From NCBI RefSeq assembly GCF_017487405.1, contig NZ_CP062222.1, positions 2,403,001 to 2,467,000 of the forward strand: a stretch of 64,000 nucleotides of DNA, in the 5' to 3' direction. Positions 40,573 to 52,425 of the stretch are shown here, piece after piece (the first letter of the stretch is position 1; each line of letters opens with the position of its first letter). The notes under the pieces are model-generated. The model saw only the letters and a list, made by a program, of their open reading frames with translations. It did no database searches and was not told where the DNA came from. The DNA is from Brevundimonas goettingensis. GTDB lineage: Bacteria; Pseudomonadota; Alphaproteobacteria; Caulobacterales; Caulobacteraceae. Made by a program: the position numbers and the translations under genes.

Positions 40573-41349
40573 TCAACCGGCTTTCGAGAAATCCGGCGCA
40601 CGTTTCTGGCTGAAGGCCATGAAGGCCTCCATCGCCTCGGGGCTGGACAGCTGCGATCCGAAGGCCTCGCCCTCGCGCTGCATCAGGGCCCAGATCTGCT
40701 CCGCGTCACGCATCAACCGCTTGGTCTTGCGGATGGAATTGGGCGCACGGGCCGCCAGTTTTGCGACCAGACCGTCGGCGACGGCGTCCACCTCGGCGGC
40801 CGGGACGCAACGGTTGGCCAGGCCCCAGGCGAAGGCCGTCTTGCCGTCGATGGGTTCGCCGAGCGCGAACATCTCGAAGGCGCGCTGATGACCCATGACC
40901 ATCGGCAGCAGCATGGAGGACGCCGCCTCGGGCGCCAGGGCCAGGTTGACGAAGGGCGTCGACAGCAGGGCGTCTTCGGCGACCACCACCAGATCGCAAT
41001 GCAGCAGCAGGGTCACCCCGATTCCGACCGCGCGGCCGCGCACCGCCGCCACCGCCGGCTTGTCCAGCTCGGCCAGGCTCTTGAGGAAGCGGAAGACGGG
41101 CGCGTCCAGCATCTGGCCGCCGCCGCTGGTCCCGATAGCGATGAAGTCGGCGATGTCGTTGCCGGCGGAGAAGCTGTCCCCCTCGGCCTTGAACACCAGA
41201 ACCCGCACGGCGGCGTCGGTCTGGGCCCGCTCCGTCGCCTCGGCCAGGGCCGCGTACATGGCCTGGGTGATGGCGTTCTTCTTCTCGGCCCGCGCCAGGG
41301 TGACGGTCAGGACGCCGTCGTTGAGTTCGGTGCGGATGGGGTCGCTCAT
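40573..41349 (-). CDS. Enoyl-CoA hydratase/isomerase family protein
   Basis: A 258-residue crotonase-fold enzyme: FSAGNDIADF (the oxyanion-forming A-G-N-D segment), KPAVAAVRGRAVGIGVTLLLHCDL and TPFVNLALAPEAASSM. It probably hydrates or isomerises enoyl-CoA in fatty acid oxidation; the second catalytic residue near AP(E)A is Glu, as in enoyl-CoA isomerases. Its ATG overlaps the stop of the MBL-fold gene (ATGA), so the two are coupled. Confidence 0.9.
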   Translation of the reverse strand: MSDPIRTELNDGVLTVTLARAEKKNAITQAMYAALAEATERAQTDAAVRVLVFKAEGDSFSAGNDIADFIAIGTSGGGQMLDAPVFRFLKSLAELDKPAVAAVRGRAVGIGVTLLLHCDLVVVAEDALLSTPFVNLALAPEAASSMLLPMVMGHQRAFEMFALGEPIDGKTAFAWGLANRCVPAAEVDAVADGLVAKLAARAPNSIRKTKRLMRDAEQIWALMQREGEAFGSQLSSPEAMEAFMAFSQKRAPDFSKAG

Positions 41350-42464
41350 GCGGTCGTTTCCTCTTCGGGATCGTTCCCGATTTCAGTGTCAGTGCGGGTC
41401 GCCGTCCACCAGTCGACGCCATCGGCGCCCCGGTCGCGGCGGGCGCGGCCCTGGGCTTCCAGATAGTTGAGGTGAGCCACGCTCTCGCCGGTGGCCATGC
41501 CGAAGACGGCGTCGCCGATCGGGCGGGCGAACAGGCTGGAGAAGACGTCAATGGCCCGGCGCGGTTCGCGCAGCGCCCGCTCCAGCCGGGTCAGCCCGGT
41601 GTGATGGCCCTTGGTCAGGGCGTCGAGCCGCGTATGGACGCCGGTAAAGGGCTCGCCGTGCGACGGCAGGACAAACAGGCCCACGGGCAGCAGGGCGCGG
41701 AGCTTGGTCAGCGAGGTCATCCAGTCGCCCAGCGGATTCTGGAGAGGCTCGGTCGGCCAGACCGAAACGTTGGACGAAATGCGCGGCAGTATCTGGTCGC
41801 CCGACAGGAAGACATCGTCCGACTTGCGCCAAAGGCAAACATGCTCAGGGCAATGGCCGTTGCCGACCACGACGGTCCAGACGTCGCCGCCGATCTCGAT
41901 GTCGTCGCCTTCGCTCAGCCGCTGATAGCTCTGCGGCATGGGATAGACGCCCTTGCCGAAGCGGCCGAACTCGCGCCGCCAGCCGTCGATCCGGTCATCG
42001 TCCCAGCCGGCCGCGCGGAAGAAGGTCTCGCCCTCGGGCGGCGCCGGGCCGGTGTCGGCGACCAGCATCCGGGCGGTGACATATTCCAGCCGCGACATGA
42101 GAAGCGGAACCCCGAACCGCTCGCACAGCCAGCCGGCGAGACCCAGGTGGTCGGGGTGCATATGGGTGCAGATCACCCGCTTGACCGGCTTGCCCCCCAA
42201 AGGCCCGGCGAAAGCCGCCTCCCAGCCCGCGATCGAGGCCTTGGTGTAGAGACCGGTGTCGACCAGGGTCCAGCCATCCCCATCGGCGAGGGCGTAGACA
42301 TTGATATGGTCCAGCGACATCGGCAGGGGCAGGCGCAGCCACAGGACCCCGGGCGCGGCCTCGACCGCCTGACCCGGCGCGGGCGGCGCGCCGAGCGGAT
42401 AGGTCAGGCCCCGCTCGGTGCGGGGTCCGGACGCCACATCCGTCGAGGTCACGCCATCGGCCAA
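41346..42464 (-). CDS. Metallo-beta-lactamase-fold hydrolase
   Basis: A 372-residue protein with the MBL metal motif THMHPDHLGLAGW (residues about 105-117), then the downstream histidine in VGNGHCPEHVCLW and Asp in FLSGDQILPRISS. MBL-fold proteins of this length hydrolyse thioesters, lactones or phosphodiesters. Coupling to an enoyl-CoA hydratase suggests a role in acyl-CoA metabolism, an inference. The start is taken as TTG 42464 with GGAG six bases upstream; other in-frame starts upstream fall in a region with weak coding character and overlap the opposite-strand gene's leader. Confidence 0.8.
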   Translation of the reverse strand: MADGVTSTDVASGPRTERGLTYPLGAPPAPGQAVEAAPGVLWLRLPLPMSLDHINVYALADGDGWTLVDTGLYTKASIAGWEAAFAGPLGGKPVKRVICTHMHPDHLGLAGWLCERFGVPLLMSRLEYVTARMLVADTGPAPPEGETFFRAAGWDDDRIDGWRREFGRFGKGVYPMPQSYQRLSEGDDIEIGGDVWTVVVGNGHCPEHVCLWRKSDDVFLSGDQILPRISSNVSVWPTEPLQNPLGDWMTSLTKLRALLPVGLFVLPSHGEPFTGVHTRLDALTKGHHTGLTRLERALREPRRAIDVFSSLFARPIGDAVFGMATGESVAHLNYLEAQGRARRDRGADGVDWWTATRTDTEIGNDPEEETTA

Positions 42465-42702
42465 GTCAGTCTCCAATCGAAACGCTGGCACATAAACCCA
42501 TCCTCCAACGCCCGTCCAGAGACGGAAGCCGCGAGAGGAGCCGCGAAGGCTTCCACAGCGTGTCCGGGCCCAGGATTCCCGGCCTGCGCGAACGCCGTGC
42601 GGCCAAGCTTCGGCGGCCGTTTCGACCTGACGCAAACCGCGCCTTGACCGCGCCACACGGGCGGGCCAATGCAGGCCCGAATTGTCCCTTCCGGAGCCTG
42701 TC

Positions 42703-43692
42703 GTGTTCAATCGAAACCTGTTTGTCGCCCTGGGCTCCGCCCTCTTGCTCGCTGCCGGCGGCGTGGCCCCCGCGATGGCCCAGACCACGACGCCGGGCGC
42801 CACCACCAACGGCGCCGAGACCACCGTGCGCGGCGAACGCGTCCTGCCCGGTCGCATCGGCGGCGACCGCAGCGAGCGGCCGCAGACCCGCAACCAGCGC
42901 GGCCGCCCCGCCCCGACCCAGACTCCGGAACAGGTCAAGGCTGCGGCCACCGTCCTGGCCGCCTCGACCAACAGCGGCTGCGCGGTCGCCGACGCCAGCC
43001 TGCGCGGCGAGAACGCTGAAAAGCAGTCGGTCTATGAGGTCACCTGCACGACCGGCCCCGGCTTCATCCTGATCGGCTCGGCCCCTCCTTCGGCCGTCGA
43101 TTGCGTGATCCTGTCCGGCCAGGCCGACATCACCCGCTCGCGCGACGCCGCAGCCGACGTCGGCCTGCAGTGCGCGATGGAGCCCAACAAGGACGTCCTG
43201 CGCGTCGTCGCCGCCTATGCCGTCGAAGCCGGCGTCCACTGCACGGTCGACCAGGGCTCCTCGGTCGGCAAATCGGCTGCGGACAACGTCATCTATGAAG
43301 TCGGCTGCGCCGGCGCCGACGGCTACTGGCTCGAAAAGACCCCCACGGGCTGGGTCACCACCGAATGCCTGAAGCTGGTCAGCCGCAACGCCGCCTGCAA
43401 ATACACCGTCCCGGCCGAACAGGTCGCCACGGTCACCAAGTGGTTCGAGGGTTCGCAAGCCGCGGCCTGCGCCCCGACGGAAGTCCGCTACATCGGCTCC
43501 AACCCCAACGGCGCCTTCTATGAAGCCAAATGCGCCCAGGGCGACGGCCTGATCGCCCGGTTCGACACCGCCATGGCCGTGCAGCAGGTCTATCCCTGCG
43601 CCGAAGCCCAGCGCATCGGCGGCGGCTGCAAGCTGACCGTCGTCCCCGACGCCGCTCCCGTGGCCGCCCCGGCTCCGGCGACACAGCAATAG
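42703..43692 (+). CDS. Secreted 12-cysteine triple-repeat protein, copy 1 of a tandem family
   Basis: A 329-residue protein with a signal peptide (residues 1-27, ending PAMAQ). After a low-complexity linker, twelve cysteines occur in three units, each C-x(20-22)-C-x(19-22)-C-x(9-22)-C (Cys 93, 115, 134, 157; 180, 202, 222, 232; 256, 277, 299, 309). Each unit contains YEVxC or YEAKC. The family is not one I recognise. The start is GTG 42703 with GGAG seven bases upstream. Two paralogs (43993 and 45094) follow, and a collapsed copy lies between this gene and the second. Confidence 0.82.
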   Translation: MFNRNLFVALGSALLLAAGGVAPAMAQTTTPGATTNGAETTVRGERVLPGRIGGDRSERPQTRNQRGRPAPTQTPEQVKAAATVLAASTNSGCAVADASLRGENAEKQSVYEVTCTTGPGFILIGSAPPSAVDCVILSGQADITRSRDAAADVGLQCAMEPNKDVLRVVAAYAVEAGVHCTVDQGSSVGKSAADNVIYEVGCAGADGYWLEKTPTGWVTTECLKLVSRNAACKYTVPAEQVATVTKWFEGSQAAACAPTEVRYIGSNPNGAFYEAKCAQGDGLIARFDTAMAVQQVYPCAEAQRIGGGCKLTVVPDAAPVAAPAPATQQ

Positions 43693-43710
43693 GCCGCCCA
43701 ACCGGCCTAT

Positions 43711-43750
43711 CGGCCAAGCCTGACGCGAAGCCGGACGGCCAAGCCTGACG
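43711..43750 (+). repeat. 15-bp direct repeat after the first Cys-repeat gene
   Basis: CGGCCAAGCCTGACG occurs at 43711-43725 and 43736-43750, with a 25-base period, just beyond the stop of the first copy and before the terminator. It is a likely tandem duplication with no assigned function. Confidence 0.6.
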
Positions 43751-43754
43751 GAAT

Positions 43755-43784
43755 GAGGACCGCGCCCCGTCGCGGTCCTCTTTT
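43755..43784 (+). terminator. Rho-independent terminator after the first Cys-repeat gene
   Basis: A perfect 10-bp stem GAGGACCGCG with CGCGGTCCTC (43771-43780) and a six-base loop is followed by TTTT. It separates the first gene from the collapsed copy and the rest of the array. Confidence 0.9.
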
Positions 43785-43871
43785 CGTATGCAGGTCCGAA
43801 AATCTCGCCAAGCTTGCATAATCGCATAACAGCGATCAACCTGAGGCCTCGCGATCACGGGGGAGGCCTCT

Positions 43872-43954
43872 ATGTTCAGAATCGTTCTGTCCCTCCCCAG
43901 GCGGCCACCATCGGCGGTGGCTGCACCCTGACGGTGCGCGCCTCGACGGAATAG
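43872..43954 (+). pseudogene. Collapsed remnant of a fourth Cys-repeat gene
   Basis: The first 21 bases encode MFRIVLS, like the MFKTVLS start of the neighbouring copy, and the last frame reads AATIGGGCTLTVRASTE then TAG, matching the C-terminal AATIGGGCKL of the third copy. The two parts are in different frames and directly joined within about 83 bases, so about 900 bases of an ancestral gene have been lost. It is the dead remains of a paralog lying between copies one and two. Confidence 0.75.
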
Positions 43955-43992
43955 CGATCCCTTCTGATACAGCGAAAATGCCGGAGATTCAG

Positions 43993-44979
43993 ATGTTCAA
44001 GACCGTCCTGTCCGCCTTGGGCGGCATCATGAGCGCCGCCCTCGTTCTGGCGGTCGCGCCCGCCGCATCGGCGCAATCCGAAAGGGGCGTCGGACCGGCG
44101 AGCAACGGCGACCTCGCGCGCGGCGTGCGCAGTATGTCGGCCGCGCTGGTCGATCCGCGCTCGAGCCCCGTCACCCAGGTCCTGCCCAGCCGACTGGACC
44201 GACAGCGCAACCGCAACGGCGTCTATACCCAGCAGCCCACGCCCAACCAGATCCTGTCCACCAGCCAATCCCAGATAAACACCGCCAACGTCGAGTGCCG
44301 CGTAGTCGACGCCGCCCTCCTGGGCTATAACGCCGACCAGCAGGGGGTCTATGAGGTCTCCTGCGGCTCTGGCATGGGCTATGTGGTCGCGGCGGCCTCC
44401 CCGCCCACGGTCACCGACTGCGTGACCCTGGCCAGTCGCGCCGAGAGCATCCGGGCCCAGGATCCCGCCGCCCCGGCCGCACTCGTCTGCAAACTGGTCG
44501 GCAACAGCAACATCGCCCATATGGTCGCCACCTACGGCCAGCAGGCCGGGGTGACCTGCGCCGTCGATCAGGCAGCCATGGTCGGCACCTCGGTCGCAGG
44601 CAATGCGGTCTATGAAATCGGCTGCCCGGGCGCCGAGGGCTACTGGATCGAGAAGACCACCGCGGGGTGGACAACCACCCCCTGCATCAAGGTCGCTGCG
44701 ACGGGCACGTCCTGCCGCTTCACCACCGGCGAGGAATCCGCCGTGTCGGCCCGGGCCTGGCTGGTCAACACCCCGGCCTCCGCCTGCGACGTGACCGACG
44801 TCCGGTATATGGGCGCCAATGCCGCCGGGGCCTTCTACGAAACCAGATGCGGCGCGGGCGGGGGCTTCGTCGCTCGCCTGGACAACAGTATGGCGGTGCA
44901 ACAGGTCTATCCCTGCGCCGAGGCCGCGAGCATCGGCGGCGGCTGCAAGCTGACCGCGGCGGTCGATCCCCGCCCGTAA
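43993..44979 (+). CDS. Secreted 12-cysteine triple-repeat protein, copy 2
   Basis: A 328-residue protein with signal peptide (MFKTVLSALGG to AASAQ, about residues 1-31) and the same three-unit cysteine pattern as the copy at 42703, including YEVSCGSGMGY, YEIGCPGAEGYW and YETRCGAGGG. The C-terminus reads EAASIGGGCKL. ATG 43993 has GGAG seven bases upstream (CCGGAGATTCAG). A GC hairpin follows at 44988. It is closely similar to the third copy, including a 46-base identical stretch, so copies two and three are the most recent pair. Confidence 0.85.
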   Translation: MFKTVLSALGGIMSAALVLAVAPAASAQSERGVGPASNGDLARGVRSMSAALVDPRSSPVTQVLPSRLDRQRNRNGVYTQQPTPNQILSTSQSQINTANVECRVVDAALLGYNADQQGVYEVSCGSGMGYVVAAASPPTVTDCVTLASRAESIRAQDPAAPAALVCKLVGNSNIAHMVATYGQQAGVTCAVDQAAMVGTSVAGNAVYEIGCPGAEGYWIEKTTAGWTTTPCIKVAATGTSCRFTTGEESAVSARAWLVNTPASACDVTDVRYMGANAAGAFYETRCGAGGGFVARLDNSMAVQQVYPCAEAASIGGGCKLTAAVDPRP

Positions 44980-44987
44980 AGGCGTCC

Positions 44988-45024
44988 GGCGGGAGGGCCG
45001 ACAAATCGCCGCGCCCTCCCCGCC
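44988..45024 (+). terminator. Hairpin between the second and third Cys-repeat genes
   Basis: GGCGGGAGGGC (44988-44998) can pair with GCCCTCCCCGCC (45013-45024) with one bulge. No T run follows, so termination is not assured. It lies about nine bases after the second gene's stop. Confidence 0.45.
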
Positions 45025-45093
45025 TGCCCCCGCTCCGGCTTGCGCTCCAGCGGAACAGCGTTCAGTCTGACTTCCGGGAAGCTGGAGGTTCAG

Positions 45094-46068
45094 ATGTTCA
45101 AAACTGTCGTGTCCGCCGTGTGCAGCCTCATCGTGCTGGCGGCCGGCTCTACCGCCCTGGCGCAGAACCCGGGCAGTACGCAAGTCGGCAATGGGGGCCT
45201 GTATTCGGGCGCGCGCAGCATGTCGGCCGCGCTGGTCGATCCGCGCTCGAGCACCGTCACCCAGGTCCTGCCCAGCAGACTTGACCGTCAGCGCAACCGC
45301 AACGGCGTTTACACCCAGCAGCCCACGATGGCGCAGGTGCTGGCCACCAGCCAGTCCGAGATGAACACCGCCAATGTCGAGTGCCGCGTCGTCGACGCCT
45401 CGCTGCTCGGCTACAACGCCGCTCAGCAGGGCGTCTATGAAGTCTCCTGCGGCTCGGGCATGGGCTATGTGGTCGCCGCCTCGTCGCCGCCCGCCGTGAC
45501 CGACTGCGTCACCCTCGCCGGCCGCGCCGAAATGGCCCGGGCCCAGGATCCCGCCGCCCCGGCCGCACTCGTCTGCAAACTGGCGGGCAACAGCAACATC
45601 ACCCGCATGGTCGCCGTCTATGGCCAGCAGGCCGGCGTTCACTGCGCCGTCGATCAGGCGGCCATGGTCGGCACCTCGGTCGCGGGCAATGCGGTCTATG
45701 AAATCGGCTGCCCGGGCGCCGAGGGCTACTGGATCGAGAAGGCCGCCTCGGGCTGGATCACCACCCCTTGCATCAAGGTCGCGGCGACCGGCACCGCCTG
45801 CCGCTTCACGACCACGGCCGAATTGGCCGCCTCGGCCAAAACCTGGCTGGTGGGCACCCCCGCTTCCGCCTGCGACGTCACCGACGTCCGCTACATGGGC
45901 GCCAACGGCGCGGGCTCCTTCTATGAAACCCGCTGCGGCGCCGGCGACGGCTTCGTGGCCCGCCTGGATAACGCCATGGCGGTGCAGCAGGTCTATCCCT
46001 GCGCCGAGGCCGCGACCATCGGCGGCGGCTGCAAGCTGGCGGCGACGGCGGCGGCCGATCGCCAATAG
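45094..46068 (+). CDS. Secreted 12-cysteine triple-repeat protein, copy 3
   Basis: A 324-residue protein, MFKTVVSAVCSLIVLAAGS then ALAQ as signal peptide, followed by the three-unit cysteine repeat with YEVSCGSGMGY, YEIGCPGAEGYW and YETRCGAGDG; C-terminus EAATIGGGCKL. ATG 45094 has GGAGG near. Segments SMSAALVDPRSS and VTQVLPSRLDRQRNRNGVY are nearly identical in the second copy. The array sits next to housekeeping xthA. Function unknown; likely an extracytoplasmic disulfide-rich protein. Confidence 0.85.
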   Translation: MFKTVVSAVCSLIVLAAGSTALAQNPGSTQVGNGGLYSGARSMSAALVDPRSSTVTQVLPSRLDRQRNRNGVYTQQPTMAQVLATSQSEMNTANVECRVVDASLLGYNAAQQGVYEVSCGSGMGYVVAASSPPAVTDCVTLAGRAEMARAQDPAAPAALVCKLAGNSNITRMVAVYGQQAGVHCAVDQAAMVGTSVAGNAVYEIGCPGAEGYWIEKAASGWITTPCIKVAATGTACRFTTTAELAASAKTWLVGTPASACDVTDVRYMGANGAGSFYETRCGAGDGFVARLDNAMAVQQVYPCAEAATIGGGCKLAATAAADRQ

Positions 46069-46139: not shown

Positions 46140-46979
46140 ATGCGTATCGCCACCTGGAATGTGAACTCGGTAAACGCCCGTCTGCCGACGGTGCTCGCCT
46201 GGCTCGAGGCCGCCGCGCCCGACGTCGTCTGCTTCCAGGAGATCAAGACGATCGACGAGAAGTTCCCGCGCGAGGCGTTCGAGCGGCTGGGCTACAATGT
46301 CGAGACCCACGGCCAGAAGACCTACAACGGTGTGGCCATCCTCTCGAAATTCCCCCTCAGCGACATCCGGCGCGGCCTGCCCGGGGCAGAGGGCGCGGGC
46401 CCCGACGGCGCCGACGACGATCAGGCGCGCTATATCGAGGCCCTGATCGAGGCCCCCGTCCCGGTGCGGGTCGGCGCCATCTATCTGCCGAACGGCAATC
46501 CCGTGGGCACTGGCAAGTTTCCCTACAAGCTGGCCTGGTTCGACCGGCTGAACGCCCACGCCCGCGACCTGCTGGCGCTGGAAGAGCCCTTCGTCCTGTG
46601 CGGCGACTACAACGTCATCCCGGAAGCCGTGGATGCGAAGAACCCGGCCGACTGGGTCGGCGACGCCCTGTTCCAGCCCGAGAGCCGCGCGGCCTTCAAG
46701 GCGCTGAAATGGCTGGGTCTGTCCGAGGCCGGCGAGCTGGGCGAGCAACCGCCCGGGACCTACACCTTCTGGGACTATCAGGCCGGCGCCTGGCAGAGGA
46801 ACAACGGCATCCGCATCGACTTCCACCTGCTCTCGCCCCAGGCCGCCGACCGGTTCCGGGGCGTGGAGACCCACCGCGACGCCCGCGACATGGACAAGCC
46901 CTCGGACCATGTCCCCGTGGTCATCGAGCTTGATATGGAAGAGGTCGCGGCGCCGAGCGCGTCGCTCCGGGCCGCCTGA
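46140..46979 (+). CDS. xthA: Exodeoxyribonuclease III (AP endonuclease)
   Basis: A 279-residue protein with the ExoIII motifs: MRIATWNVNSVNARL at the N-terminus, CFQEIKT with the metal-binding Glu, VLCGDYNVIP with the active Asp and Asn, and the C-terminal SDHVPVV with catalytic Asp-His. It incises abasic sites and degrades DNA from 3' ends in base excision repair. ATG 46140; the stop shares one base with the next gene's start (TGATG). Confidence 0.96.
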   Translation: MRIATWNVNSVNARLPTVLAWLEAAAPDVVCFQEIKTIDEKFPREAFERLGYNVETHGQKTYNGVAILSKFPLSDIRRGLPGAEGAGPDGADDDQARYIEALIEAPVPVRVGAIYLPNGNPVGTGKFPYKLAWFDRLNAHARDLLALEEPFVLCGDYNVIPEAVDAKNPADWVGDALFQPESRAAFKALKWLGLSEAGELGEQPPGTYTFWDYQAGAWQRNNGIRIDFHLLSPQAADRFRGVETHRDARDMDKPSDHVPVVIELDMEEVAAPSASLRAA

Positions 46980-47494
46980 TGGGCGAGGCGCTGCGGGTCA
47001 TCCTGCTGGTCGGCCTCGCCGCCGCGGCCCTGACCACCGTCGCCCTGACGCTGAACTGGTGGATGGAGCCCGAGCGCCGCATGCGCCGCGCCCTGCTCAA
47101 GTCGCTGGGCGTTCAGCCCGAGGCCGAGGCCCTGTCGCCGACCGAGGGCCGGGCCGCCGGCCTGGACTTCGACGGCGGCCAGATCGCCGTCCTCTGGGAC
47201 CGGGGCGCCCACGGTCTGGTCTATGGCTTCGAGGAGGTCGAGGGCGGCGAGGTCATCGTCGACGGCCATGTCCTGGCCCGCATTCGCCGCGGCGAACCGC
47301 GCAAGTCGCTGGACGTCATGGCCCCTGACGCCGAACAGGTGACCCTGCGGCTGATGTTCGCGGACGCCCGCTATCCCGAGTTCGAACTGGCGCTGTGGAA
47401 CGCCGTCGCCCCGGCCCAGACGGGCTCTCCGGCCGAGGCCCTGCGACTGGGCCGTCGCTGGTTGTCCCACCTGGAAGCGCTGTTGAAGGCCTGA
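46979..47494 (+). CDS. Membrane-anchored protein of unknown function, coupled to xthA
   Basis: A 171-residue product with one N-terminal membrane helix (LRVILLVGLAAAALTTVALTLNWWM is more than one helix length, residues about 5-28), then a soluble part with FDGGQIAVLWDRGAHGLVYG and repeated acidic positions. ATG 46979 overlaps the xthA stop. No family is recognised. The C-terminal half resembles no known fold that I can name, so only topology is given. Confidence 0.65.
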   Translation: MGEALRVILLVGLAAAALTTVALTLNWWMEPERRMRRALLKSLGVQPEAEALSPTEGRAAGLDFDGGQIAVLWDRGAHGLVYGFEEVEGGEVIVDGHVLARIRRGEPRKSLDVMAPDAEQVTLRLMFADARYPEFELALWNAVAPAQTGSPAEALRLGRRWLSHLEALLKA

Positions 47495-47570: not shown

Positions 47571-48479
47571 GTGGCCCGCCTTTTCGACGCCTATGTGATC
47601 GCTGACTGGACCGCCGCCGAGGGCAAGAAGCTCGGCGAGAACTCCGTATGGATCGGGGTGGCCAAGCGCGACGTGCGCTTCCGCCTGTACACCGAGACCC
47701 ACAATGTCGCGACGCGCGCCGAGGGCGAGGCCCTGCTGGCCTCGATCCTGGCCGATCACAGGAAGCGCGGCGACCGGGTCCTGGTCGGCTTCGACTTCTC
47801 GCTGGGTTACCCCACGGGCACGGCCGCGCGCCTGAAGCTGACGGGCGAGCCGATCTGGTCGGCCATGTGGAAATTCATCGCGGCCAACATCGTCGACAAA
47901 CCGGACAACACCAACAACCGCTATCAGGTCGCGGCCAAGATGAACCGCCTCATGACGGATGAAGCCTGGCCGTTCTGGGGCTCGCCCGCCAACCAGGCGC
48001 AGCGCTGGCTGACCACGACCAAGCCGCCCGCAGGCGCCGGCGCCGACATCCCCGAATATCGCGCGACGGAGAACGCCGTGCGCAAGGGCCGGCTGCAGCC
48101 CAAGTCGAACTGGCAGATGCACGGCGCCGGCGCCGTCGGCGGCCAGACCCTGGTCGGCATCCCGGCCGTGCGCCGCCTGCTGGAAAGCCTGGGCGCCTCG
48201 GCCGCCGTCTGGCCCTTCGGCACCGGCTGGCGGGCGCTAGACGCCGCCGACGTCGAGCCCCTGTCGGTGCTGGTCGCCGAGGTCTGGCCGTCGATGTGGC
48301 CCACCACCGCCGCCGAGGGCGAGTTCAAGGACCAGGCCCAGGTGCGCACCACGGCCATGGCCTTCGCCGAGCTGGACGACAAGGGCGAGCTGGCCCGGGC
48401 CTTCGGTCCGCCGAAGGACGCCTCACCCGAACTGATCGCGCAGGTCGAGCAGGAAGAAGGCTGGATCCTGGGCGTCTGA
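47571..48479 (+). CDS. Conserved hypothetical protein with RNase H-like first strand motif
   Basis: A 302-residue protein starting at GTG 47571 with AGGAG five bases upstream. The first segment RLFDAYVIADWTAAEG and RVLVGFDFSLGYPTG are the kind of acidic, glycine-rich strands seen in RNase H-like or DUF429 proteins, a resemblance only. Other segments include WWTTTKPPAG-type linkers and VRRLLESLGASAAVWPFGTGW. No enzyme class is assigned. It is followed by a small membrane-protein gene about 70 bases later. Confidence 0.6.
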   Translation: MARLFDAYVIADWTAAEGKKLGENSVWIGVAKRDVRFRLYTETHNVATRAEGEALLASILADHRKRGDRVLVGFDFSLGYPTGTAARLKLTGEPIWSAMWKFIAANIVDKPDNTNNRYQVAAKMNRLMTDEAWPFWGSPANQAQRWLTTTKPPAGAGADIPEYRATENAVRKGRLQPKSNWQMHGAGAVGGQTLVGIPAVRRLLESLGASAAVWPFGTGWRALDAADVEPLSVLVAEVWPSMWPTTAAEGEFKDQAQVRTTAMAFAELDDKGELARAFGPPKDASPELIAQVEQEEGWILGV

Positions 48480-49125: not shown

Positions 49126-52100
49126 TTACCAGGCCTTGTAGTTCAGGCCGATGAAGAAGCGGCGGCCGTAGGGGTCGAAGTTCGAGTAGAGCGTCGTGCC
49201 CAGGTACGGCGCTTGTTCGGCGTCGAAGGCGTTGACCACGCCCGCCCGCAGCGCCAAGTCGTCATTGACGTTGTAGCGGAAGGTGAAGTCGTTACGGACG
49301 AAGTTGCCGGTGCTCAGTTCGTTCGGCTGACGCGAGTCCATGTTGGAGATGTAGTCGCGGGCGAAGACGATGTTCTGGGACGTCTGCCAATCCGCCGTCC
49401 AGTTGACGCTCCAGGTCTCGTTCGGGGTCCAGGTCAGCGACGAGGTCATGCGAACACGCGGGTAGAAGAGCGTGCTGGCCAGTTCGTCATAGTCCGACGG
49501 ATCCGACTCGTTCAGGTACTGCTGCTGGGTGATCAGCCAGGAGCCGCCCAGCGAGTAGTCGAACTGACCGAAGTTGCGGCCGAACATTTCCTCGGTGTCG
49601 ATGCGGTAGCGGGCGTTGAAGTCCAGACCGCGGGTCTTCAGGGCGGCGTAGTTGAACGAACGCTCGATGAAGCTGCCGACGGCGAACGGGCTCACGCCGC
49701 CCGTACGGAAGATCGTCGAACAGGCGTCGGAGTTCAGCGTCGCGCCATTGACGCAGTTGGCCGCCGCCGTATCGGCCGAGACCGCCGCGATCACGTCGTC
49801 GATGTTGATCTCGTAGTAGTCGAGCACCAGGCTGAAGTTCGGGATGAAGCGCGGACGCAGAGCCACCGAGAAGGTGAAGGAGTCCGATTCTTCCGGCTTC
49901 AGGTTCGGGTTGCCGCCGGCGAGACCCGCGATGCCCGAGGTGTAGTTCGGACGGAAGTCGTCGGTGTTCTGGGGCGTGAGGCCGGCGAAGTCGAAGGTCA
50001 GCCCCTGGGCGGCTGCGAGAGCCGTACAGTTGTTGATCCGGTTGGTCCGGGTTTCCGCGTCGTTGACCGCTGCGATGTTGAGCGTGGTGCAGGGGTCGAC
50101 GATGCCGTTGGCGAAGGTCTGGCTGTTCGGCGCGAAATTCTCGCCCAGATCCGGCACGCGGATCGAGGTGTTGTAGCTGGTCTTGAAGGTGATGTCCTGG
50201 ATCGGACGATAGACCAGGTTCACGCCGTAGACGTCGGTGTTGCCGACGGTCGAATAGTCGGCGTAGCGGTAGGAGCCGCTCAGCTCGGCGTATTCGCCCA
50301 GGAAGGTGTCGCGGAACAGCGGCACCGAGAGTTCGGCGAAGAACTCCTTGCTGTCATAGCTGGCTTCGGGGAAGTCCGGGCCGGTGTTGAGGAACAGCAT
50401 CCGGCCGGCGGTGTCGCGGTCGCGACCCGTCGCCTCGGTGGTTTCCTTGCGGTATTCGCCGCCCAGGGCGACGCCGATGGCGCCGGCGCCCCAGAAGTCC
50501 CACAGGTTGCCGGAGATCGAGGCGATCCCCTGCTGCTGTTCGTTGCGCTCGGTGACGTGGATGGTCGCATCGACGTAGTCGAGCGCGGCCTGGCTCTGGT
50601 TGCCCTTGCCGAAGACGTTCAGCGGTTGGCAGGAGTTGATCGCGGCCTGACCGTAGGCGGTGTCACGCAGGTCGCCGAGGTAGTTGTCGGTGCCCGGGTT
50701 GTAGTCGGTGACCACGCCACCCTGCCTGGCGATAATCTGGGCGCGGCAGACGATGGCGCCGGGGGTGCCCATGACGCCGGCGGTGTCGACGACCGAGTCG
50801 ATGGCCAGAGCGAAGCGTTGGCTGTCGACGCCGCGTTCGAAGTTCTCAACCTCGACCTTGCCGTAGGTATAGCCGATGTCGAAATCGAGGTTCTTGACGA
50901 AGCCGAAGTCGCCCAGGTCGCCGCTCACGCCGGCGACATAGCGCTGCAGGTCACGGGTGTTGTCCTGGGTGCGGTCCGGGCCGAACATGCTGTGGCGCGC
51001 GTTCTGAACCAGGAACGGAGTACCCGCCGTGCCCGGCGTCGTCGCGGTCGGGGTCGAGTACGGCGTCACCAGGTTGGTGCGGATCGCGTCCTTGACGTTC
51101 TGCGGCAGGAAGGCGTTGTCCGACCAGCGCAGGTCGAAATTGTTCACCGCATAGATCGGGTTGGATTCGCGCGAGCCGTAGGAGTTGACCAGATCGATAT
51201 CGAAGAAGGTGGGCTGACCGACGTCGAAGGTGTCTTCGGTGACGTATTTGGCCTCACCGTAGGCGGTGATGTTGTCGGTGATCTTGAAGTTGGCGCCGAC
51301 CTGGTAGCGCTGCGATTCCGAACGGGGCACGCGCGAACCGGTCGAGAATTCGGCCGGGTTCTCGCCGTCGCCGCCGATGTTGTAGGGGCGGTTGGCGCCG
51401 GTGTTGCCGACACGCTGGCCGAAATTGGCCGCGCGGGCGGTCGTGCCGTCGTACCAGAAGGTCTTGCCGGGGGTCACGCCGAAGCAGTTGGAGGAGTAGC
51501 TGAAGTTGCCGGCCGAGTTGCCGCCCGGGAAGCAGTTCTCATAGGCGACGTTCGGGTTGGTCAGGTCGCTGGGCTGCTGGACGTTGGCCAGGGTGGTCTG
51601 ACCCCAGCGCGGACGGTCGATGCGGCTGACGCCGGTGTACAGGCGGGCGTCCAGGATGCCGTCATCAGGGCGGCTGGTCGGATCGGCGTCGACGCCGATG
51701 CGGACCGGAGCGCGACGCAGCCAGTCGATGTCGAGCGAGGTGACCTCGTCGATCTTCTCGTATTCGCCGTGGGCGTAGACGTTCAGGCGATCATCGAAGA
51801 AATTCTTGCCGATCAGGGCCGAGATACGGCGGTTGGCCTGACCGTCCTCGTTGATCTGGCCGTAGCTGGCGTCGACCTCGAGACCTTCGAAGTCCTTCTT
51901 CAGGATGAAGTTCAGAACGCCGGAGACGGCGTCGGCGCCATAGACCGACGAGGCGCCGCCCGTGACGATTTCGACGTTCTGGATCAGCAGGCGCGGGATG
52001 GTGTCGATGTCCACCGACAGCGAACCGCCCGACGAACCGACGTGGCGACGGCCGTCGACCAGGGTCAGGGTGCGGTTCGAACCCAGCGAGCGCAGGTTCG

Positions 52101-52425
52101 GCAGCGACAGACCGCCGTCACCCAGGTTCGAGCCCGTGGTGTCCGAAGGCACGACCGAGTTCGACAAGGCCGGGATGGTGGCCAGGTAGTCGATCACCGT
52201 CGACTGACCGGTGGTCAGCAGCTGGTCCTGCGAGATCTGGATCAGCGGGGTCGGGGCGTTGACGGCGTCACGGCGGATGCGCGAGCCGGTGACGACGACT
52301 TCCTCGACCGTGGTCGTGTCGTCCTGGGCGCCGGCGACCGGGGCCGGAGCAGTCTGTGCCAGGGCGGGAGCCCCAAGGGCGATGGCCGTCGTGAAGATTG
52401 TGGAGGCCAGCAAGTGCTTACGCAT
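49126..52425 (-). CDS. Large TonB-dependent outer-membrane receptor
   Basis: A 1099-residue protein: signal peptide to about residue 24 (IALGAPALAQ), a TonB-box region TVEEVVVTGSRIRR (residues about 39-52), plug domain (YLATIPALSNS, NLRSLGSNRTLTLVDGRRH, DIDTIPRLLIQNVEIVTGGA) and a very long barrel ending with tryptophan. The VVVTGSRI form marks the large receptors for carbohydrates, peptides or other organic nutrients in Caulobacterales. The substrate is not told. ATG 52425. The 545-base AT-richer region upstream is its probable control region; a hairpin follows the stop. Confidence 0.93.
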   Translation of the reverse strand: MRKHLLASTIFTTAIALGAPALAQTAPAPVAGAQDDTTTVEEVVVTGSRIRRDAVNAPTPLIQISQDQLLTTGQSTVIDYLATIPALSNSVVPSDTTGSNLGDGGLSLPNLRSLGSNRTLTLVDGRRHVGSSGGSLSVDIDTIPRLLIQNVEIVTGGASSVYGADAVSGVLNFILKKDFEGLEVDASYGQINEDGQANRRISALIGKNFFDDRLNVYAHGEYEKIDEVTSLDIDWLRRAPVRIGVDADPTSRPDDGILDARLYTGVSRIDRPRWGQTTLANVQQPSDLTNPNVAYENCFPGGNSAGNFSYSSNCFGVTPGKTFWYDGTTARAANFGQRVGNTGANRPYNIGGDGENPAEFSTGSRVPRSESQRYQVGANFKITDNITAYGEAKYVTEDTFDVGQPTFFDIDLVNSYGSRESNPIYAVNNFDLRWSDNAFLPQNVKDAIRTNLVTPYSTPTATTPGTAGTPFLVQNARHSMFGPDRTQDNTRDLQRYVAGVSGDLGDFGFVKNLDFDIGYTYGKVEVENFERGVDSQRFALAIDSVVDTAGVMGTPGAIVCRAQIIARQGGVVTDYNPGTDNYLGDLRDTAYGQAAINSCQPLNVFGKGNQSQAALDYVDATIHVTERNEQQQGIASISGNLWDFWGAGAIGVALGGEYRKETTEATGRDRDTAGRMLFLNTGPDFPEASYDSKEFFAELSVPLFRDTFLGEYAELSGSYRYADYSTVGNTDVYGVNLVYRPIQDITFKTSYNTSIRVPDLGENFAPNSQTFANGIVDPCTTLNIAAVNDAETRTNRINNCTALAAAQGLTFDFAGLTPQNTDDFRPNYTSGIAGLAGGNPNLKPEESDSFTFSVALRPRFIPNFSLVLDYYEINIDDVIAAVSADTAAANCVNGATLNSDACSTIFRTGGVSPFAVGSFIERSFNYAALKTRGLDFNARYRIDTEEMFGRNFGQFDYSLGGSWLITQQQYLNESDPSDYDELASTLFYPRVRMTSSLTWTPNETWSVNWTADWQTSQNIVFARDYISNMDSRQPNELSTGNFVRNDFTFRYNVNDDLALRAGVVNAFDAEQAPYLGTTLYSNFDPYGRRFFIGLNYKAW

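What the first reader, a model, noticed from the sequence alone, without database searches (positions are those of the whole stretch)
42703..46068. Tandem array of three secreted 12-cysteine triple-repeat proteins of no recognised family
Three adjacent genes encode 324-329-residue proteins that share a signal peptide and three units of about 75 residues, each with four cysteines and a YEVxC-type core. I do not recognise the domain. Regular even cysteine numbers suggest disulfides, and the proteins look like extracytoplasmic, possibly surface or envelope-stress, factors. Tandem amplification with one dead copy suggests active gene-family turnover.
Basis: partly seen in the sequence, partly recalled or inferred. 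Interest (0 to 1): 0.78.

Follow-up and report, generated by a model that had tools for sequence, protein, structure and literature searches.

The report
Caulobacteraceae-only four-cysteine secreted repeat module
Three neighbouring genes encode probably exported proteins built from three copies of an unnamed cysteine-rich module that nearly every sampled member of one bacterial family, the Caulobacteraceae, carries and that was hardly ever seen elsewhere; what it does is still unknown.

Summary
Genes at 42703-43692, 43993-44979 and 45094-46068 encode signal-peptide-bearing proteins of 329, 328 and 324 residues with three homologous four-cysteine units; a gutted further copy lies at 43872-43954. 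Pfam, NCBIfam, PHROGs, PADLOC and PDB-sequence searches gave no significant match.

The module occurs as 3-unit proteins (Brevundimonas), 5-unit proteins (the other Caulobacteraceae genera examined, a few Brevundimonas) and a sporadic 1-unit Brevundimonas protein, with 12, 20 or 4 cysteines. A glutamate three residues before the second cysteine is present in 1065 of 1065 units compared. The family is in 146 of 149 Caulobacteraceae genomes (133 of 133 good ones) and 0 of 47 other Caulobacterales by profile. AlphaFold gives each unit as a helix plus a four-stranded, propeller-blade-like meander; PDB matches are weak and mainly single blades.

The gene usually lies divergent from an MBL-fold hydrolase gene, behind a conserved promoter. 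Most loci hold one copy; this array predates its closest relatives' split.

Best reading: a periplasmic or secreted, disulfide-clamped, multivalent binding scaffold. Module and distribution are well supported; export and fold are predicted; disulfides and binding are inferred; the ligand is unknown.

The parts
42703..43692 (+). Gene 1: 329-aa three-unit protein with signal peptide; the copy that groups with the mostly single-copy orthologues
42643..42671 (+). Promoter-like element of gene 1: CTTGACC, 16 bases, CCAATG
   Evidence: CTTGACC upstream of 108 of 137 distinct family upstream regions, 1.0 expected in mononucleotide shuffles; layout; rough control: 1 of 74, 1 of 90 and 1 of 93 upstream regions of three neighbour genes
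43872..43954 (+). Remnant of a further copy: start of the signal peptide and an out-of-frame C-terminal end, middle deleted
   Evidence: blastn match of 43886-43932 to gene 2 and 43886-43925 to gene 3
43993..44979 (+). Gene 2: 328-aa three-unit protein (P0002)
44236..44499 (+). Gene 2, unit 1 (residues 82-169; Cys 102, 124, 143, 166; Glu 121)
44500..44721 (+). Gene 2, unit 2 (residues 170-243; Cys 189, 211, 231, 241; Glu 208)
44722..44955 (+). Gene 2, unit 3 (residues 244-321; Cys 265, 286, 308, 318; Glu 283)
45094..46068 (+). Gene 3: 324-aa three-unit protein (P0003), 81% identical to gene 2
41346..42470 (-). Conserved divergent neighbour: MBL-fold hydrolase (start codon not settled)
   Evidence: Pfam Lactamase_B and B_lactamase-like_C above cut-off; divergent neighbour in 73 of 82 three-unit and 15 of 26 five-unit loci
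46140..46979 (+). Conserved downstream neighbour in Brevundimonas: exodeoxyribonuclease III gene
   Evidence: NCBIfam TIGR00195 and TIGR00633 above cut-off; directly downstream in 71 of 83 three-unit and 0 of 26 five-unit loci

Best explanation
The array encodes members of an apparently undescribed protein family, essentially restricted to Caulobacteraceae, of exported modular proteins. Each module is a small domain: an alpha-helix, then a four-stranded antiparallel meander resembling one beta-propeller blade, then a short helix, most likely clamped by two disulfides inside the module, with one invariant glutamate on the second strand. One, three or five modules are strung together behind a signal peptide and, in the one- and three-unit forms, a flexible tail. 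Most likely the mature protein works in the periplasm or at the cell surface as a multivalent scaffold whose repeated modules each bind the same kind of envelope partner, the invariant glutamate marking the binding face; five- and three-module forms, and the extra copies here, would tune avidity or dosage. SHOWN by comparison: module homology, cysteine and glutamate conservation, distribution, synteny. PREDICTED: fold (AlphaFold) and export (signal peptide read by eye, no predictor run). INFERRED: disulfides, binding role, glutamate as the binding residue. The ligand is unknown.
For: Glu at C2-3 in 1065 of 1065 units of 120 one-unit, 120 five-unit and 115 of 122 three-unit proteins (these are the best-scoring listed hits), and in 95 of 95 units of 19 diverse five-unit proteins, whose 380 of 380 cysteine positions are kept as well, although the units of gene 2 are only 23-28% identical; in a 29-unit alignment only 4 Cys, this Glu and one Gly are invariant. 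Cysteines come in even numbers: 4, 12 or 20, and three proteins have two extra cysteines, both in the N-terminal tail. One-unit proteins show that the module can stand alone. Confident models: 3-unit pLDDT over 90 across nearly all of the unit region, pTM 0.71; 5-unit pLDDT 86.9 with five helix-plus-four-strand repeats, pTM 0.57, as expected for beads with loose joints. Present in 146 of 149 family genomes, 133 of 133 good ones, 22 of 22 genera, arguing for a core function.
Against: No ligand, localisation or phenotype data. The invariant Glu could be structural (for example capping a helix or backbone amides). Isoelectric points differ widely (median 4.9 in 1- and 3-unit, 8.1 in 5-unit proteins), so no shared charged surface points to one ligand. 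The neighbours (MBL hydrolase, enoyl-CoA hydratase, exonuclease III) do not suggest an envelope pathway.
Confidence: 0.4

Rival explanations
1. An exported inhibitor or decoy: multi-domain, disulfide-rich inhibitors of proteases or of cell-wall lytic enzymes, each module inhibiting one enzyme, with the one-unit protein working with its operon partner, a lipoprotein with PdaC/DUF3298 domains of the kind that form the lysozyme-binding part of RsiV (that Pfam PdaC is the former DUF4163 is recalled).
For: One-unit genes abut or overlap (1-4 bases, by my start calls) the end of a gene for a PdaC/DUF3298-type lipoprotein in 3 of 3 genomes examined (Pfam scanned for two of the three, one of them around or below the curated cut-offs). 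RsiV, made of DUF4163 and DUF3298, binds lysozyme (PMC5014341, passages seen). Tandem disulfide modules and gene copies are common among inhibitors (recalled).
Against: The same paper reports that a related protein, Rv1980c, does not bind lysozyme. Only 1 of 19 five-unit proteins gave a weak, probably chance, match to an inhibitor family (Inhibitor_I69, E 0.015). The main locus has no such partner among the neighbours scanned. Strictly conserved modules are unlike an arms race.
Confidence: 0.15
2. A purely structural or spacer protein in the periplasm or at the surface: the modules are rods or spacers and the glutamate is a fold determinant.
For: The invariant positions are all compatible with fold maintenance; family-wide presence with changing unit number, 3 or 5.
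Against: Strand alternation puts the glutamate on the face opposite C2 and the hydrophobic residues of strand 2 (my inference; no coordinates seen), and it is kept even in one-unit proteins, where there is no neighbour unit to pack against.
Confidence: 0.2
3. The cysteines bind metal or a cofactor instead of forming disulfides, giving a redox or metal-storage protein.
For: Four cysteines plus one invariant carboxylate per module is a possible metal ligand set.
Against: Signal peptides imply the oxidising periplasm; the conserved cysteines are at least 9 residues apart, so no CxxC or CxxCH; the three proteins with extra cysteines have two each.
Confidence: 0.08
4. A lectin-like closed beta-propeller assembled from the blades, in one chain or by oligomerisation.
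For: Foldseek hits of both models are mostly propellers by their titles, including fucose lectins; 86 hits at E 0.001 or better for the five-unit model.
Confidence: 0.07

Closest known systems
Single beta-propeller blades (WD40, EPTP, lectin propellers in the PDB)
   Different: No sequence similarity; here each meander is preceded by a helix, carries four invariant cysteines and an invariant Glu, and the model does not superpose on a closed ring
RsiV-type PdaC/DUF3298 envelope proteins
   Same: Exported (by signal sequence); encoded next to the one-unit form in 3 of 3 genomes examined
   Different: A different protein: the one-unit protein itself has no Pfam match; partnership is only a lead
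Caulobacterales signature proteins of PMC2241609
   Same: Lineage-restricted hypothetical proteins of Caulobacter and relatives
   Different: Its Table 5 lists proteins shared by Caulobacter, Oceanicaulis and Maricaulis (one section read), whereas this family was not found in the other Caulobacterales families sampled; the table's entries were not compared by sequence
Disulfide-stabilised tandem-repeat secreted proteins in general (recalled class)
   Same: Repeated small cysteine-paired modules behind a signal peptide
   Different: No homology found to any catalogued member

Membership tests
The family defined here (four-cysteine Caulobacteraceae module) | Four cysteines per unit: C1-C2 21-23 apart (up to 30), C2-C3 18-28, C3-C4 9-12 or 17-24 | tested here: met
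   9 of 9 units of the three window proteins; spacings tabulated for 1065 units, top three values per unit type
The family defined here (four-cysteine Caulobacteraceae module) | Glu three residues before C2 | tested here: met
   1065 of 1065 units, 95 of 95 in A3; Glu 121, 208 and 283 of P0002 invariant in 115 rows
The family defined here (four-cysteine Caulobacteraceae module) | N-terminal signal peptide | not tested
   Read by eye (hydrophobic stretch and AxA-type end); no signal-peptide predictor was available
The family defined here (four-cysteine Caulobacteraceae module) | Two disulfides within each module | not testable with these tools
   Only even cysteine numbers support it
Any Pfam or NCBIfam family | Score at or above the curated cut-off | tested here: not met
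   3 window proteins, 3 relatives, the own genome's fourth paralogue and 1 one-unit protein: none above cut-off; 19 five-unit proteins: no match better than E 0.0043 in Pfam or 0.028 in NCBIfam, each in 1 of 19
Beta-propeller | Blade-like four-stranded meander | tested here: inconclusive
Beta-propeller | Blades closed into a ring | tested here: inconclusive
   Query-normalised TM 0.09-0.16 and rmsd 8.1-27.9 A in the listed rows, but unit orientation is uncertain (pTM 0.57 and 0.71)
Anti-phage defence (PADLOC) or phage protein (PHROGs) | Significant profile match | tested here: not met
   PADLOC 0 families for 5 proteins; PHROGs best E 0.004, over a short stretch; 55 pattern matches in viral contigs, none encoding a relative

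The most novel reading that the evidence does not exclude
A new extracytoplasmic domain family that arose at the base of the Caulobacteraceae and became universal there: a self-standing, disulfide-clamped 'single blade' module with an invariant glutamate, multiplied to 1, 3 or 5 copies as a multivalent binder of an envelope component peculiar to the Caulobacteraceae.
Probability: 0.4. Interest if true: 0.75.

Novelty: new variant of a known kind. Interest (0 to 1): 0.57.

Why it matters
A protein family found in 133 of 133 good-quality Caulobacteraceae genomes sampled (the family of the model bacterium Caulobacter crescentus), not found in the neighbouring families sampled and missing from every annotation library searched, is a candidate for a core trait peculiar to this lineage. 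The one-unit form gives a 4-cysteine domain small enough for quick structural and disulfide analysis, and the invariant glutamate gives one residue to change, so function is directly testable in standard laboratory strains. It also offers a marker for the family and a natural series (1, 3, 5 modules) for studying repeat gain and loss.

Tried and rejected
Known family: Pfam, NCBIfam, PHROGs, PADLOC and PDB-sequence searches gave nothing significant; PlyCA_N at E 0.54, FAD_binding_4 in 1 protein at E 0.0043, Inhibitor_I69 in 1 at E 0.015, phrog_11159 at E 0.004 and pleckstrin at E 0.26 are treated as chance. Viral origin: 55 pattern matches in viral contigs, none encoding a relative; predicted viral structures gave no match at E 0.001.

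Spread outside Caulobacteraceae, results against the restriction: genome surveys gave marginal hits only (G189 and G262 at E 0.008-0.009; G512 at 0.007; G332 at 0.0025 with a stop inside), treated as chance. One one-unit protein (P0250, 61% identical to the B. viscosa protein, on a 327-kb contig) is labelled [Roseibacterium] beibuensis, a Roseobacteraceae species; mislabelling, contamination or transfer was not resolved. A metagenome bin labelled Bordetella carries a Brevundimonas-type gene (L015) and is treated as mis-binned because the gene nests among B. diminuta sequences.

Disulfide connectivity from co-loss of cysteines failed, because no complete protein examined lacks a conserved cysteine. 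Cell-cycle (CtrA full site 0 of 137; GANTC 31 of 137, below the 53.5 expected) and ECF-type (GGAAC 16 of 137 v 16.6) elements upstream are not enriched.

Literature: six searches for possible descriptions found none (listings seen only); one section of PMC2241609 and passages of PMC12700997 do not mention it. Most subscription papers are not in that library, so 'not in print' is not claimed. The C. crescentus locus tag was not identified.

Functional link to the MBL hydrolase: adjacency is strong in Brevundimonas but shared there with exonuclease III, and weaker elsewhere (15 of 26), so it may be only a shared intergenic region.
Full report
WHAT IS THERE. Three + strand genes, 42703-43692 (GTG start), 43993-44979 and 45094-46068, encode proteins of 329, 328 and 324 residues. 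Genes 2 and 3 are 81% identical and gene 1 is 42% identical to gene 2. Each begins with a signal-peptide-like stretch (read by eye; no predictor was run), followed by a tail of about 50 residues and three units. Comparing the units as profiles gives probabilities of 97.3 (1 v 2), 96.9 (1 v 3) and 87.1 (2 v 3), with 28, 28 and 23% identity in gene 2, so they are true repeats. Between genes 1 and 2, at 43872-43954, lies a gutted copy: start of a signal peptide, then the last residues of a unit out of frame. By eye its C-terminal end (GGGCTLTVRASTE) resembles homologues P0018 and P0019 (GGGCTLTTRAETQ, GGGCTLTPRAAER) more than genes 1-3 (sequences), so the genome probably once had a fourth type that relatives retain. 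The own genome has one more three-unit gene, about 460 kb away (G000:C1:1986742-1987446), and 12 units in all. The window's genus is inferred to be Brevundimonas: handle G037, given as the same genus, shares a contig length with B. viscosa.

HOW CONSERVED. Of 123 homologues of gene 2 (120 listed), 115 rows were aligned (A2: the 3 window proteins and 112 of the 119 other listed hits; 7 listed hits left out, 4 of them truncated). All 12 cysteines are invariant in 115 of 115. The hits that bear an organism name are Brevundimonas or Caulobacteraceae; most bear none. In the other Caulobacteraceae genera examined the proteins are longer, 438-494 residues, and have five units; in 19 diverse five-unit proteins (A3), down to 25% identity to the first row, 380 of 380 cysteine positions and 95 of 95 glutamates are kept. 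Profile scores pair unit 1 with unit 1, 2 with 2 and 3 with 3 across the two forms, so the three-unit form most simply lost units 4 and 5. A few genomes of this genus carry five-unit genes (G083, G092, L062). A profile search with A3 found 766 proteins (120 listed). A genome search with A3 also hit, in two genomes of this genus, a one-unit protein with a signal peptide, of which 155 relatives were found (120 listed).

THE MODULE. I compared 120 one-unit, 120 five-unit and 115 of 122 three-unit proteins, that is, the best-scoring listed hits. The 7 three-unit proteins left out are 4 truncated sequences and 3 with two extra cysteines in the N-terminal tail. Having 4, 12 or 20 cysteines after residue 28 was the criterion for entering this count, so it shows cysteine conservation only in that so few were dropped. 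The residue three before the second cysteine was not selected for, and it is glutamate in 1065 of 1065 units. Independently, all rows of A2 (115), A3 (19) and A4 (68) keep every cysteine, and 105 distinct three-unit proteins from loci lose no cysteine and no glutamate (5 of these coincide with A2 rows). In a 29-unit alignment, with identities to the first row of 15-49%, only four Cys, this Glu and one Gly are invariant.

WHO HAS IT. Within Caulobacteraceae: 146 of 149 genomes and 22 of 22 genera, and 133 of 133 genomes that are at least 90% complete and at most 5% contaminated; the three misses are 63, 85 and 71% complete. Across the order with a five-unit protein as query: the 21 Caulobacteraceae match, and 1 of the 79 others has a marginal hit at E 0.007. 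With the five-unit profile: 13 of 13 Caulobacteraceae and 0 of 47 from four other families. With the unit profile: 3 of 190 genomes of the class, two of this genus and one marginal, and 4 of 150 of the phylum, all Caulobacteraceae. With a five-unit protein: 5 of 289 of the class, three of this genus and two marginal. The one-unit form is in 3 of 99 family genomes, all of this genus. Against the restriction, one one-unit database protein is labelled [Roseibacterium] beibuensis, a Roseobacteraceae species; this was not resolved.

NEIGHBOURHOOD. After removing loci with identical gene ends, a divergent MBL-fold hydrolase gene lies beside the unit gene in 73 of 82 three-unit loci and 15 of 26 five-unit loci with enough flank; exonuclease III follows directly in 71 of 83 and 0 of 26. 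Eight of the nine three-unit exceptions are second-site paralogues that I fetched on purpose. A first count over all 119 loci, duplicates included, gave 99 and 77; an intermediate one with cruder gene starts gave 73 of 84 and 12 of 27 for the MBL gene. CTTGACC occurs in the 150 bases upstream of 108 of 137 family genes (1.0 expected in mononucleotide shuffles; the genomes are related, so the sites are not independent, and starts were chosen by my own rule). It lies mostly 55-72 bases before the start, with a CCAAGG-like element 16 bases on (97 distinct sites). As a rough control it occurs upstream of 1 of 74 exonuclease III, 1 of 90 enoyl-CoA hydratase and 1 of 93 MBL genes. In the window only gene 1 has it. 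One-unit genes abut or overlap the end of a gene for a PdaC/DUF3298-type lipoprotein by 1-4 bases in 3 of 3 genomes (domains scanned in two).

EVOLUTION OF THE ARRAY. At the MBL locus 66 of 76 three-unit loci have one copy, 7 two and 3 three; truncated contigs may hide copies. In a quick tree of 148 rows gene 2 pairs with P0005 (SH-aLRT 99), gene 3 with P0006 (91), and gene 1 with P0040 (99), so the duplications predate these splits; 42 of 145 inner branches are weak. Genes 2 and 3 differ with dN/dS 0.28. Gene 1 against genes 2 and 3 gives 0.69 and 0.85, which is no sign of strong purifying selection; those pairs are far apart (59-62% identical DNA, tails included) and I do not interpret them further.

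MECHANISM. I commit to a disulfide-clamped, multivalent binding scaffold outside the cytoplasm, at 0.4. The least secure steps are binding and the role of the glutamate. Strand alternation puts the glutamate on the face opposite C2 and the hydrophobic positions C2-2 and C2-4 (inference, without coordinates); one-unit proteins keep it, so it is not explained by packing between units of one chain. Against: it may be structural, and isoelectric points differ between forms.

NOVELTY. As a domain family it found no significant match in Pfam, NCBIfam, PHROGs, PADLOC or, by sequence, the PDB. As a kind of thing, a secreted tandem-repeat protein with paired cysteines, it is familiar. Six literature searches found no description, in an incomplete library.

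Noticed in passing
L165 6154-7538; L166 7421-8817; L191 5673-7843: One-unit module genes abut or overlap the 3' end of a PdaC/DUF3298-type lipoprotein gene, downstream of a ubiA-like gene (named by eye), in 3 of 3 genomes; a possible functional pair.
   Followed up: partly
P0244-P0363; gene 2 residues about 65-76: A basic motif like PSRLxxxRxxxNRGR sits in the tail before the module: 110 of 120 one-unit proteins match a loose pattern, but only 1 of 122 three-unit and 0 of 120 five-unit proteins do. Genes 2 and 3 have a related stretch (PSRLDRQRNRNG), and its Arg is at least 90% conserved in A2. Its role is unknown.
   Followed up: partly
window 46979-47494 and 47571-48479 (+): Two genes downstream of exonuclease III recur in 76 and 74 of 119 loci but have no Pfam family; the second matches NCBIfam PRK14495.1 well below its cut-off.
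   Followed up: no
window 49126-52425 (-): TonB-dependent receptor (Pfam plug and barrel) near the array.
   Followed up: no
L004/L140, G000:C1:1986742-1987446: A fourth three-unit paralogue, 277 aa by my start call, elsewhere in the genome; the second-site paralogues compared share no neighbour genes with it at the cut-off used.
   Followed up: partly
P0010, P0011, P0014: Three relatives have exactly two extra cysteines in the N-terminal tail, as expected for an added disulfide.
   Followed up: no
L015; P0250: A metagenome bin labelled Bordetella carries a B. diminuta-like gene, and a protein labelled [Roseibacterium] beibuensis is a one-unit member; probably mislabelled, but transfer is not excluded.
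   Followed up: partly
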